Shown in pieces: positions 32,089 through 45,087 of a stretch of 64,000 bases of DNA (within the stretch, counting starts at the first letter, position 1; the number at the start of each line of letters is the position of its first letter). The notes beneath the pieces are model-generated. The model saw only the letters and a list, made by a program, of their open reading frames with translations. It searched no databases and had not been told where the DNA came from. Made by a program: the position numbers and the translations under genes. The DNA comes from Paenibacillus pasadenensis DSM 19293 (GTDB taxonomy: Bacteria > Bacillota > Bacilli > Paenibacillales > Paenibacillaceae), in the NCBI RefSeq assembly GCF_000422485.1, contig NZ_AULW01000015.1, positions 1-64,000 of the forward strand, given 5' to 3'.

Positions 32089-32994
32089 ATGAAGAAATCG
32101 GAATGGCTGCTGCTTGTCGTCACGTTATGCTGGGGGTCCGCTTACTTGCTGTTGAAGGCGGCGATGGAGGCGGTCGAGCCGCTCATGCTGATCGGGCTGC
32201 GCTTCATGATCGGCTTCCTGATCGCCGGCGCGATCCTGTATCCCCGGCTGAGGAAGGCGACGCGCCGAACCGTCGCGCTCGCCGCGATGCAAGGCGCGCT
32301 GCTGTTCCTCATCTCCGTGACGGTCACGTTCGCGCTCAAGTCGACGTCGACCGCGAACGCCAGCTTCCTGCTCAGCCTGACGGTCATCTTCGTGCCGCTC
32401 CTGTCCGCGACGTTCCTGCGCCAGAAGCTGACGCCGCAGCTGACGGCGGGCATCGGCTTCGCCATCGCCGGCATCGGCCTGATGACGCTGAAAATGCCGC
32501 TGTCGATGCAGCCCGGCGACCTGCTCTGCATGCTCGCCGCCCTCATCAACGCGACGTACGTGCTGCTGACGTCCCGAGCGGCTAAAGAAGTCGACACGAT
32601 CAATCTCGGCGTCCTGCAGCTCGGCTTCGCCGGCCTGTTCGGACTGATCTTCGCCGGCTTCATGGGCCAGCTGTCGCTTCCGTCGACCGGCGGAGGCTGG
32701 GGAGCGATCCTCGCGCTCGCTGTCGTCTGCAGCGCCTTCTGCTACATCGCCCAGCCGGCCGCGCAGAAATTCACGACCGCCTCGCGAGCGGGACTCATCT
32801 TCTCGATGGAGCCGGTGTTCGCGGCGATGTTCGGCTTCCTCGTCGTGGGAGAAATGCTCTCTGCGCAAGGCTATGCAGGCGCGGCGCTCGTCCTCACCGG
32901 CGTGCTCGTCTCGGAGTACGGAGCCCGCTGGCTGCAAGCGCTGCGCCGCCGCAGCCGCCCGCAGGCGCAGCCGGAGCCGGGCATGCTGCCCTAG
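32089..32994 (+). CDS. EamA/DMT-family transporter
   Basis: 301 aa with ten predicted helices in two EamA repeats (about 5-135 and 150-285). The first helix carries SEWLLLVVTLCWGSAYLLLKA and the second repeat ends near GAALVLTGVLVSEY. DMT proteins of this type export metabolites or drugs. Start: ATG 32089 has GGAG 12 bases upstream; an in-frame ATG at 32071 has only AAGAAAGA before it. A TATACT lies just before 32041. It is divergent from a LysR gene that probably regulates it. Confidence 0.88.
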   Translation: MKKSEWLLLVVTLCWGSAYLLLKAAMEAVEPLMLIGLRFMIGFLIAGAILYPRLRKATRRTVALAAMQGALLFLISVTVTFALKSTSTANASFLLSLTVIFVPLLSATFLRQKLTPQLTAGIGFAIAGIGLMTLKMPLSMQPGDLLCMLAALINATYVLLTSRAAKEVDTINLGVLQLGFAGLFGLIFAGFMGQLSLPSTGGGWGAILALAVVCSAFCYIAQPAAQKFTTASRAGLIFSMEPVFAAMFGFLVVGEMLSAQGYAGAALVLTGVLVSEYGARWLQALRRRSRPQAQPEPGMLP

Positions 32995-39639: not shown

Positions 39640-39669
39640 TTGTCGAGCGCTGCCGGATTGTGCTACAAT
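39640..39669 (+). promoter_or_regulatory. Promoter of FMN riboswitch transcript
   Basis: TTGTCG (39640-39645) and TACAAT (39664-39669) with an 18-bp spacer, ending about 20 bp before the riboswitch. Confidence 0.65.
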
Positions 39670-39687
39670 TCGGTCTAACTGAATCTG

Positions 39688-39836
39688 AACCTTCGGGGCA
39701 GGGTGAAATTCCCTACCGGCGGTGACGGCGCCAGCTTGGCGCCGAAGCCCGCGACTCCCGCTGCCGCTTCATGCGGCGGCGGGACTGACTTGGTGCGAGT
39801 CCAAGGCCGACGGTATAGTCCGGATGAGAGAAGGTG
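39688..39836 (+). ncRNA. FMN riboswitch (RFN element)
   Basis: The conserved parts of the RFN element are present in order: CTTCGGGGCAGGGTGAAATT, CCCTACCGGCGGTGA, AAGCCCGCGA, GACTTGGTGCGAGTCC, AAGGCCGACGGTATAGTC and CGGATGAGAGAAGG. It senses flavin mononucleotide and normally switches off riboflavin synthesis or uptake genes when FMN is plentiful. The gene downstream is an EamA transporter, not a rib gene. Confidence 0.95.
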
Positions 39837-39878
39837 AAACCCTGCTTGGCGCCATTTTTGGCGGCAGGCGGGTTCTTC

Positions 39879-39920
39879 ATGCCCCCGTCCTGATCCTTCA
39901 GGCGGGGGCATGCTGCTTCT
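39879..39920 (+). promoter_or_regulatory. Expression-platform hairpin of FMN riboswitch
   Basis: ATGCCCCCG pairs with CGGGGGCAT, with an inner CCTGA/TCAGG stem. It lies between the aptamer and the start codon. Its tail (GCTGCTTCT) is not strongly T-rich, so it could act as a weak terminator or as part of a translational switch. Confidence 0.6.
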
Positions 39921-39947
39921 AACGAGGTTCAATTCAAATTCCGTTTC

Positions 39948-40949
39948 ATGGGGGTTTTTGAATTGGGTACGACCGCTGCCGCATCGAGTCCGCTGCAGGC
40001 GGACCGCGGCGGACTGCTCTCCTGCGGGCGCGGCATCTGGTATGTCGCGCTCGGAGCGACGCTCTGGGGAGTCGATCCGCTGTTCCGCATCCTGCTGCTC
40101 CAGCATTTCACGTCCGCGCAGATCGTCTTTCTCGAGCATCTGCTGCTGGCCGTCTATTCCGTTCCGGTCCTGATCCATTACCGTCATCAGCTCGCCGGCA
40201 AGCTCACGCTCGGCATCGTCGGCGCGATGCTGTTCATCTCCTGGGGAGGCTCGGCGATCGCCACCGTCATGTTCACCGCGGCGTTCAGCTACGGCAACTT
40301 CAACGCCGTCCTGCTGCTGCAGAAGCTGCAGCCGCTGTTCGCGATCCTGCTCGCGCGGATCGTGCTGCGCGAAGCGCTGCCGCGCCGCTTCGGCTGGTTC
40401 CTGCTGCTGGCGCTGGCCGGCACCTACCTGCTGACGTTCGGCTTCGGCTCCCCGGCGCTCGGCCTGCATGACCTCGCTACCCTCGGCTGCCTGCTCTCCA
40501 TCGGGGCGGCGGCGCTGTGGGGCGGATCCACCGTCATGGGCAAGTACCTGCTCACCAAGGGCATGGGCTTCCACTTCGTGACGGCGCTGCGCTTCCTGCT
40601 CGCCATCCCGCTGCTCGGCCTGCTCGTCCTCGTCGCCGGCGACGGCTGGCAGACGCTCGGCGCAGGGGGTGCGGCGGCGCTGCTGCTCGTGAACCTGCTG
40701 TTCCAGGCGTTCATCCCGGGCTTGCTGAGCATGCTGCTCTATTACAAAGGGCTGTCCGGCACCAAAGCCTCGCTCGCCACGCTCGCGGAGCTGGCGTTCC
40801 CTGCCGTCGGCGTGCTCATCAACTGGCTCGTCTTCGACCAGGCGCTCACCGCCGGCCAAGTCGCCGGCTTCGTGGTCATCTGGACCGTGCTCGTGCTGCT
40901 GAGCCGCAGCGCCTCGCGCTCCGCTCAGCCCGCCGCTCCTGCGGGCTGA
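39948..40949 (+). CDS. EamA/DMT transporter under FMN riboswitch control (candidate flavin transporter)
   Basis: 333 aa with ten predicted helices in two EamA repeats (about 30-160 and 180-320). A 25-residue soluble start is followed by GRGIWYVALGATLWGVDPLFRILLL; FVTALRFLLAIPLLGLLVLV lies in the second repeat. Since the leader carries an FMN riboswitch, the likely role is riboflavin uptake or export, like the DMT-type predicted flavin transporters (ImpX) found downstream of RFN elements in other bacteria. The start codon has no good SD: ATG 39948 is tentative, and TTG 39963 lies eight bases after GGGGG and is an alternative. A bidirectional terminator follows. Confidence 0.88.
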   Translation: MGVFELGTTAAASSPLQADRGGLLSCGRGIWYVALGATLWGVDPLFRILLLQHFTSAQIVFLEHLLLAVYSVPVLIHYRHQLAGKLTLGIVGAMLFISWGGSAIATVMFTAAFSYGNFNAVLLLQKLQPLFAILLARIVLREALPRRFGWFLLLALAGTYLLTFGFGSPALGLHDLATLGCLLSIGAAALWGGSTVMGKYLLTKGMGFHFVTALRFLLAIPLLGLLVLVAGDGWQTLGAGGAAALLLVNLLFQAFIPGLLSMLLYYKGLSGTKASLATLAELAFPAVGVLINWLVFDQALTAGQVAGFVVIWTVLVLLSRSASRSAQPAAPAG

Positions 40950-40984: not shown

Positions 40985-41044
40985 AAAAAGGGCGGCAGCC
41001 CGAATCCTCCCCTCTGAGGCGGATCCGGGCTGCCGCCCTTTTTA
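40985..41044. terminator. Bidirectional terminator
   Basis: AAAAAGGGCGGCAGCCCG pairs with CGGGCTGCCGCCCTTTTT around an inner GATCC/GGATC element; it lies between convergent genes. Confidence 0.95.
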
Positions 41045-44530: not shown

Positions 44531-44610
44531 CCGCATCCCCCTCCTTCTTCGATCTGTCCTCATTATTCCATGCCGGAGAGAACATGGCAAAACGGCCGAT
44601 CGGACGGCGG

Positions 44611-44892
44611 AGCGGAAACCGGAAATCGCTTCGCGGAGCGAGCGTCGTGACCGGCATCCGCTTCGCGGAGCATCGTGACCGGTATCCGCTTCGCGGAGCC
44701 GGCGTCGTGACCGGCACGCGCTTCGCGGAGCGAGCGTCGTGACCGGCATCCGCTTCGCGGAGCGGGCAATGTGACCGGTATCCGCTTCGCGGAGCGGGCA
44801 ATGTGACCGGTATCCGCTTCGCGGAGCGGGCATCGTGACCGGTATCCGCTTCGCGGAGCGGGCATCGTGACCGGTATCCGCTTCGCGGAGCG
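44611..44892. repeat. Repeat island 2: array A (nine 32-bp-type units)
   Basis: Nine copies of CGCTTCGCGGAGC, first at 44627-44639 and last ending at 44891. The last units repeat exactly every 32 bp (GTGACCGGTATCC, then GCTTCGCGGAGCGGGCATC). Between cores only about 19 bases vary slightly, so these are tandem repeats, not spacers. The core can fold as CCGCT/AGCGG. Two copies occur in island 1. Confidence 0.93.
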
Positions 44893-45087
44893 GGGACTCG
44901 TTCCGATCTCCCTGGAGCCCAGATTCCTTTGATCCCATTCCCCAGCAGGGGTGGAATCCGGCCTCCAAGGGAACCGCTGCCGCTTCTCCACGAGTTCCCC
45001 GCCCCGCTTCGCTCCGGTCCCCAAGCTCTACTCATGCCCCGCATACGGTACGCAGCTCCACACCAAGCTCCTACTTTCCTTTTAGAT
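44893..45087. repeat. Repeat island 2: shared core segment
   Basis: Nearly identical to 14152-14350, in the same orientation and with the same order of flanking arrays. It begins GGACTCGTTCCGATCTCCCT and ends ACTTTCCTTTTAGAT. Short indels separate the copies (for example CACAACACC against CACACC), which argues against selection as coding sequence. Confidence 0.88.

What the first reader, a model, noticed from the sequence alone, without database searches (positions are those of the whole stretch)
39640..40949. FMN riboswitch controls an EamA-family transporter
A complete RFN element with promoter and downstream hairpin leads directly into a ten-helix DMT/EamA gene instead of a rib operon or ribU. 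This makes the protein a candidate riboflavin or flavin transporter of a family whose substrates are mostly unknown. The start codon lacks a clear SD, so the switch may act on translation as well.
Basis: partly seen in the sequence, partly recalled or inferred. Interest (0 to 1): 0.65.

Follow-up and report, generated by a model that had tools for sequence, protein, structure and literature searches.

The report
FMN riboswitch before an ImpX-type transporter
A vitamin-B2-sensing RNA switch sits in front of a membrane transporter gene of the known ImpX family of riboflavin importers, so the cell probably makes the importer only when flavin runs short; this is an ordinary arrangement for the group, with a corrected start codon and a probable second, translation-level layer of control.

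Summary
A full FMN riboswitch aptamer (39685-39839 +, Rfam RF00050, 107.8 bits, gathering score 66.2) is followed 108 bases later by a ten-helix EamA/DMT gene. The pairing is no accident: in 98 related genomes, 42 orthologues (50-100% identical) all lie 106-251 bases behind an FMN riboswitch. A Fusobacterium gene that lies behind its own FMN riboswitch, between near-matches to the published F. nucleatum impX primers, falls in the same clade (profile score 144 bits, against at most 16 for any other EamA protein of the host). F. nucleatum ImpX rescues an E. coli riboflavin auxotroph (PMC4418817). So this is a new member of a known kind, most likely a flavin-repressed riboflavin importer.

Two corrections. 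The start codon is most likely TTG 39963 with a good Shine-Dalgarno, not ATG 39948. The leader also holds two conserved pairings, a Shine-Dalgarno/start hairpin and a helix between the aptamer's 5' strand and the sequence just before that hairpin. These support control of translation; the terminator-like hairpin has a weak T tract in this genus. The genome also has rib genes behind their own FMN riboswitch and an unswitched ECF riboflavin-type protein.

The parts
39640..39669 (+). sigma-A type promoter, -35 TTGTCG, extended -10 TG(C)TACAAT
   Evidence: shuffle mean 0.1; same -10 in close relatives
39679..39694 (+). 5' strand CTGAATCTGAACCTTC: holds the P1 5' strand of the aptamer and can instead pair with 39923-39937 (anti-sequestor helix)
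   Evidence: cognate pairing stronger than non-cognate, 0 of 20000 permutations
39685..39839 (+). FMN riboswitch aptamer (RFN element), P1 39689-39694/39830-39835
   Evidence: Rfam RF00050, 107.8 bits
39841..39872 (+). hairpin between aptamer and terminator-like hairpin
   Evidence: fold -25.1 kcal/mol over 39840-39875; similar hairpins visible in close relatives
39878..39912 (+). GC-rich terminator-like hairpin, weak T tract in this genus (GGGGC-TTTTT in several relatives)
   Evidence: -29.5 kcal/mol; comparison
39923..39937 (+). 3' strand of the anti-sequestor helix (CGAGGTTCAATTCAA)
39927..39968 (+). sequestor hairpin with the Shine-Dalgarno in its loop and the TTG start in its 3' arm
   Evidence: -13.9 kcal/mol, z -4.2; cognate-arm test
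39949..39955 (+). Shine-Dalgarno TGGGGGT, aligned with AGGAGG in relatives
   Evidence: anti-SD duplex -9.1 kcal/mol
41018..41034 (+). terminator-like hairpin with T tract after the gene
   Evidence: though shuffles give 1.2 such sites on average

Best explanation
The locus is an FMN-repressed, single-gene transcription unit for an ImpX-type riboflavin importer of the drug/metabolite transporter superfamily. When FMN is plentiful it binds the aptamer and fixes the P1 stem; the GC-rich hairpin forms and, in relatives with a T tract, ends transcription. With P1 holding the aptamer's 5' strand, the segment TTCAATTCAAA is free to pair with TTTGAATTG, closing the Shine-Dalgarno and TTG start in a hairpin. 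When FMN is scarce the 5' strand leaves P1, pairs with that same segment and opens the ribosome-binding site, so the importer is made. Shown by sequence: aptamer, gene, conserved linkage, kinship with ImpX, conserved alternative pairings. Inferred: riboflavin as substrate, direction of transport, repression by FMN, and the balance between termination and translation control.
For: Aptamer. Linkage: 42 of 42 orthologues with at least 50% identity lie 106-251 bases behind an RFN on the same strand in 98 relatives; the two weaker homologues (45-46%) have none. Four more RFN-linked orthologues in a different family of the phylum. Kinship: a Fusobacterium gene behind its own RFN (118 bits) lies between sites matching the impX primers of PMC4418817 with 3 mismatches each and none expected; it is 31% identical over 281 aa, scores 144 bits with the profile of the window's orthologues while other EamA proteins of the host score at most 16, and joins them in one clade with local support 0.93. 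The second RFN in the genome, and in the relatives read, precedes ribD or another rib gene with few exceptions. Alternative helices: cognate arms pair better than non-cognate ones, anti-sequestor z -4.3 (0/20000), sequestor z -4.3 (1/20000); one leader per genus, z -3.6 and -2.6. The two states are near-equal in energy in the window (P1 -153.5, anti-sequestor -153.2 kcal/mol), as a switch needs. Ten-helix DMT fold.
Against: Identity to the Fusobacterium protein (31%) is below the 38% orthologue cut-off used in PMC4418817. No transport or expression data. The core of the anti-sequestor in the window leaves part of the sequestor standing. The window's own anti-sequestor pairing is only moderately better than shuffled sequence (12 of 200 shuffles as good). 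Several genera and the Fusobacterium leader lack one or both extra helices. Clade members without an RFN exist, one of them in an F420 gene cluster, so the clade may not be uniform in substrate.
Confidence: 0.78

Rival explanations
1. FMN-controlled, but the cargo is another flavin-related compound (FMN, lumichrome, a precursor, an antivitamin such as roseoflavin), or the protein exports rather than imports.
For: Many DMT proteins are exporters (general knowledge). A clade member without RFN sits in a cofD-cofC-DMT-nitroreductase cluster of Thermomicrobium, which hints at deazaflavin-related cargo in part of the clade. The cell has riboflavin synthesis genes.
Against: F. nucleatum ImpX restores growth of E. 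coli dribB at low riboflavin (PMC4418817), an import phenotype. Repression by FMN fits an importer better than an exporter.
Confidence: 0.15
2. The switch works only by transcription termination; the start-site hairpin and the 5'-strand pairing are incidental.
For: Clear GGGGC-TTTTT terminators in several relatives, and no sequestor in several of them.
Against: In the window's genus the T tract is weak (2 T of 8) while the sequestor is strong; across leaders longer T runs go with weaker sequestors (Spearman 0.70, sequences not independent). Cognate arms match. The anti-sequestor strand lies downstream of the terminator-like hairpin, so it cannot act on termination there.
Confidence: 0.3
3. The riboswitch is a relic next to an unrelated transporter.
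For: None found.
Against: 42 of 42 linkages over many genera and a second family; intact aptamer core.
Confidence: 0.01

Closest known systems
ImpX (Fusobacterium nucleatum; predicted also in Desulfitobacterium hafniense)
   Same: EamA/DMT protein, single gene behind an FMN riboswitch; same clade by profile and tree
   Different: 31% identity; the Fusobacterium leader lacks the GC-rich hairpin and a clear anti-sequestor pairing
RibU / YpaA (ECF S component)
   Same: RFN-controlled riboflavin uptake in Bacillota
   Different: Unrelated protein; in this genome the ECF riboflavin-type protein (PRK13661 model, 248.8 bits, G000:C7) has no RFN
RibN (Rhizobium, Ochrobactrum, Vibrio)
   Same: Riboflavin transporter, RFN-controlled in alphaproteobacteria; by general knowledge also DMT type
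   Different: Restricted to Proteobacteria per PMC4418817; no RibN sequence was obtained, so not compared
YddG, LicB, triose-phosphate translocator, SLC35 nucleotide-sugar transporters
   Same: Ten-helix DMT fold
   Different: Other substrates, 13-20% identity

Membership tests
FMN riboswitch (RF00050) | Full-length covariance-model match above the gathering score | tested here: met
   107.8 bits against 66.2, positions 1-138 of 138
FMN riboswitch (RF00050) | FMN binding and ligand-dependent expression | not testable with these tools
   needs in-line probing or a reporter
DMT / EamA | EamA domain repeats and ten-helix DMT fold | tested here: met
   two EamA stretches; AlphaFold2 ten helices, best PDB hits are DMT proteins
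ImpX | Same clade as the Fusobacterium ImpX orthologue, apart from other EamA proteins | tested here: met
   profile 144 bits against at most 16; clade support 0.93
ImpX | Single gene directly behind an FMN riboswitch, in a riboflavin producer | tested here: met
   neighbours on the other strand
ImpX | At least 38% identity over 80% length to the F. nucleatum prototype (cut-off of PMC4418817) | tested here: not met
   31% over 281 aa against the F. vincentii orthologue. This is a practical search cut-off of that paper, not a structural criterion; I therefore write ImpX-type rather than ImpX orthologue by that paper's rule
ImpX | Riboflavin uptake | not testable with these tools
   shown for F. 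nucleatum only (PMC4418817)
RibU | ECF S-component domain | tested here: not met
   only EamA found in the window protein
RibN | Orthology to RibN of Rhizobium | not tested
   alphaproteobacterial plasmid RFN loci that were read gave rib genes or hypothetical proteins, no RibN

The most novel reading that the evidence does not exclude
Orthologous FMN riboswitch leaders have moved between transcription termination and translation control: the same aptamer 5' strand that builds P1 doubles as an anti-sequestor for a hairpin over the start codon, and genera with poor terminators have strong sequestors, so one leader family records both designs.
Probability: 0.45. Interest if true: 0.45.

Novelty: new member of a known kind. 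Interest (0 to 1): 0.3.

Why it matters
It gives the EamA protein a testable substrate, riboflavin, instead of a bare family name, and shows that an ImpX-type gene is the regular FMN-controlled transporter in nearly half of the related genomes examined, a group for which my library searches returned no report. The leader set offers natural variants for asking how a riboswitch exchanges a terminator for a start-site switch while the aptamer stays the same.

Tried and rejected
Exact primer match for F. nucleatum impX in genome contigs: only chance hits in Haemophilus and a Peregrinibacteria genome, no RFN near. RibN could not be recovered from alphaproteobacterial plasmids. One search was an uninformative probe with an arbitrary short peptide. 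A first automatic terminator finder gave unreliable hairpins and was replaced. No solved protein is close by sequence. I considered and rejected chance linkage and ATG 39948 as start.

Full report
What is there. The window carries one Rfam match in 64 kb, the FMN riboswitch aptamer at 39685-39839 on the + strand (107.8 bits, full length). An extended -10 promoter lies just before it. A GC-rich hairpin follows at 39878-39912 (-29.5 kcal/mol), then the EamA gene. The likely genes on both sides are on the other strand: upstream a small protein without a Pfam match, a response regulator and histidine kinase, and an ABC transporter pair; downstream a methylguanine-methyltransferase-type DNA-binding protein, a DUF6509 protein and a helicase. 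So this looks like a one-gene unit.

Is it more than chance? Among 98 related genomes, 93 have at least one FMN riboswitch and 44 have two or more. Of 44 homologues of the window protein at E <= 1e-40, the 42 with 50% identity or more all lie 106-251 bases behind an FMN riboswitch on the same strand; the two weaker ones do not. The other riboswitch stands before ribD or another rib gene in the loci that I read, apart from the exceptions listed under things noticed. In 398 genomes drawn from the phylum, five members outside the window's family were found; four, all in one other family, also lie behind an FMN riboswitch.

What the protein is. PMC4418817 reports that F. nucleatum ImpX, predicted as riboflavin transporter from its riboswitch, restores growth of E. 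coli dribB at low riboflavin. A search of plasmid records found a Fusobacterium vincentii record of 2.1 Mb (filed as a plasmid) with a homologue. That gene lies behind an FMN riboswitch of 118 bits and between sites that match the published impX primers with three mismatches each where none is expected, so it is very likely the orthologue of the tested protein. It is 31% identical to the window protein over 281 residues. A profile of the window's orthologues scores it 144 bits, and the best other EamA protein of the host 16 bits; a tree joins it with them at local support 0.93. The predicted structure has ten long helices (28-50, 56-77, 88-115, 118-139, 148-164, 179-203, 208-230, 240-271, 274-294, 302-325), and its solved neighbours are LicB, the triose-phosphate translocator, SLC35 proteins, CMP-sialic acid transporters and 5i20, which I recall as YddG.

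The start codon. TTG 39963, in frame, has GGGGGT seven bases upstream. Close relatives without the ATG carry AGGAGG or GGAGG and TTG at that same place. I therefore take TTG 39963 as the likely start, giving 328 residues.

How the switch may work. Three helices share strands: P1 of the aptamer (39689-39694/39830-39835); a helix between 39679-39694 and 39923-39937; and a hairpin 39927-39968 that holds the Shine-Dalgarno in its loop and the start codon in its arm. The second and third cannot both form fully, nor can the first and second. In 28 distinct leaders, cognate arms pair better than arms swapped between species: second helix -12.0 against -10.0 kcal/mol (0 of 20000 permutations as good), third -10.1 against -8.0 (1 of 20000); with one leader per genus z is -3.6 and -2.6. 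The sequences are related, so these are not strict probabilities. In the window leader the folds with P1 and with the second helix are about equal in energy, so FMN could tip the balance. The second helix uses sequence downstream of the terminator-like hairpin and so can only act on translation or mRNA life. In the window's genus the T tract is poor; in leaders with long T tracts the start-site hairpin is weak (Spearman 0.70). The literature held here treats dual termination/translation control by riboswitches as known in other cases, and the F. nucleatum impX aptamer is itself a standard FMN riboswitch model (PMC11014391), so neither element is new in kind.

What remains open. Transport, substrate and FMN response are not shown for this locus. 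The genome also has a protein of the ECF riboflavin-type S-component model (248.8 bits, above cut-off) without a riboswitch, so the ImpX-type protein may not be the only route. A clade member in Thermomicrobium, without riboswitch, lies in a cofD-cofC-DMT-nitroreductase cluster, which leaves room for other flavin-like cargo in the wider clade.

Verdict. Correct observation, mostly correct reading, known kind. What is added is the firm link to ImpX, the corrected start, and a testable two-layer switch.

Noticed in passing
L073 (G044:C1:2411401-2414500), 1-1155: A third FMN riboswitch in one related genome precedes a different DMT gene, not related to ImpX by BLAST, nearest to TIGR03340 (130 bits, below cut-off). 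Homologues occur in 35 of 98 relatives; this copy is the one seen behind an RFN. Possibly another flavin transporter.
   Followed up: partly
L022 (G080:C1:438015), 1501-2678: A strong FMN riboswitch (114 bits) whose next gene is a class I methyltransferase-like protein about 280 bases on, not a rib gene or transporter.
   Followed up: no
L093, 3443-6656 (Thermomicrobium roseum megaplasmid): ImpX-clade protein without riboswitch in a cofD-cofC-DMT-nitroreductase cluster; may move an F420-related deazaflavin.
   Followed up: partly
G000:C7:99816-100448 (L154:1317-1949): ECF riboflavin-type S component (PRK13661, 248.8 bits) without an FMN riboswitch in the window's genome.
   Followed up: partly
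window 32101-32910 +: A second EamA/DMT gene in the window, no riboswitch found near it.
   Followed up: no
NZ_CP084075.1 (L094): A 2.1 Mb Fusobacterium vincentii record filed as a plasmid, by size more likely the chromosome.
   Followed up: no
window about 44560-45030: Minus-strand reading frames contain a run of repeated peptide units (RSAKRIPVT, READTGH), apparently a DNA repeat array next to an oxidoreductase-like gene.
   Followed up: no
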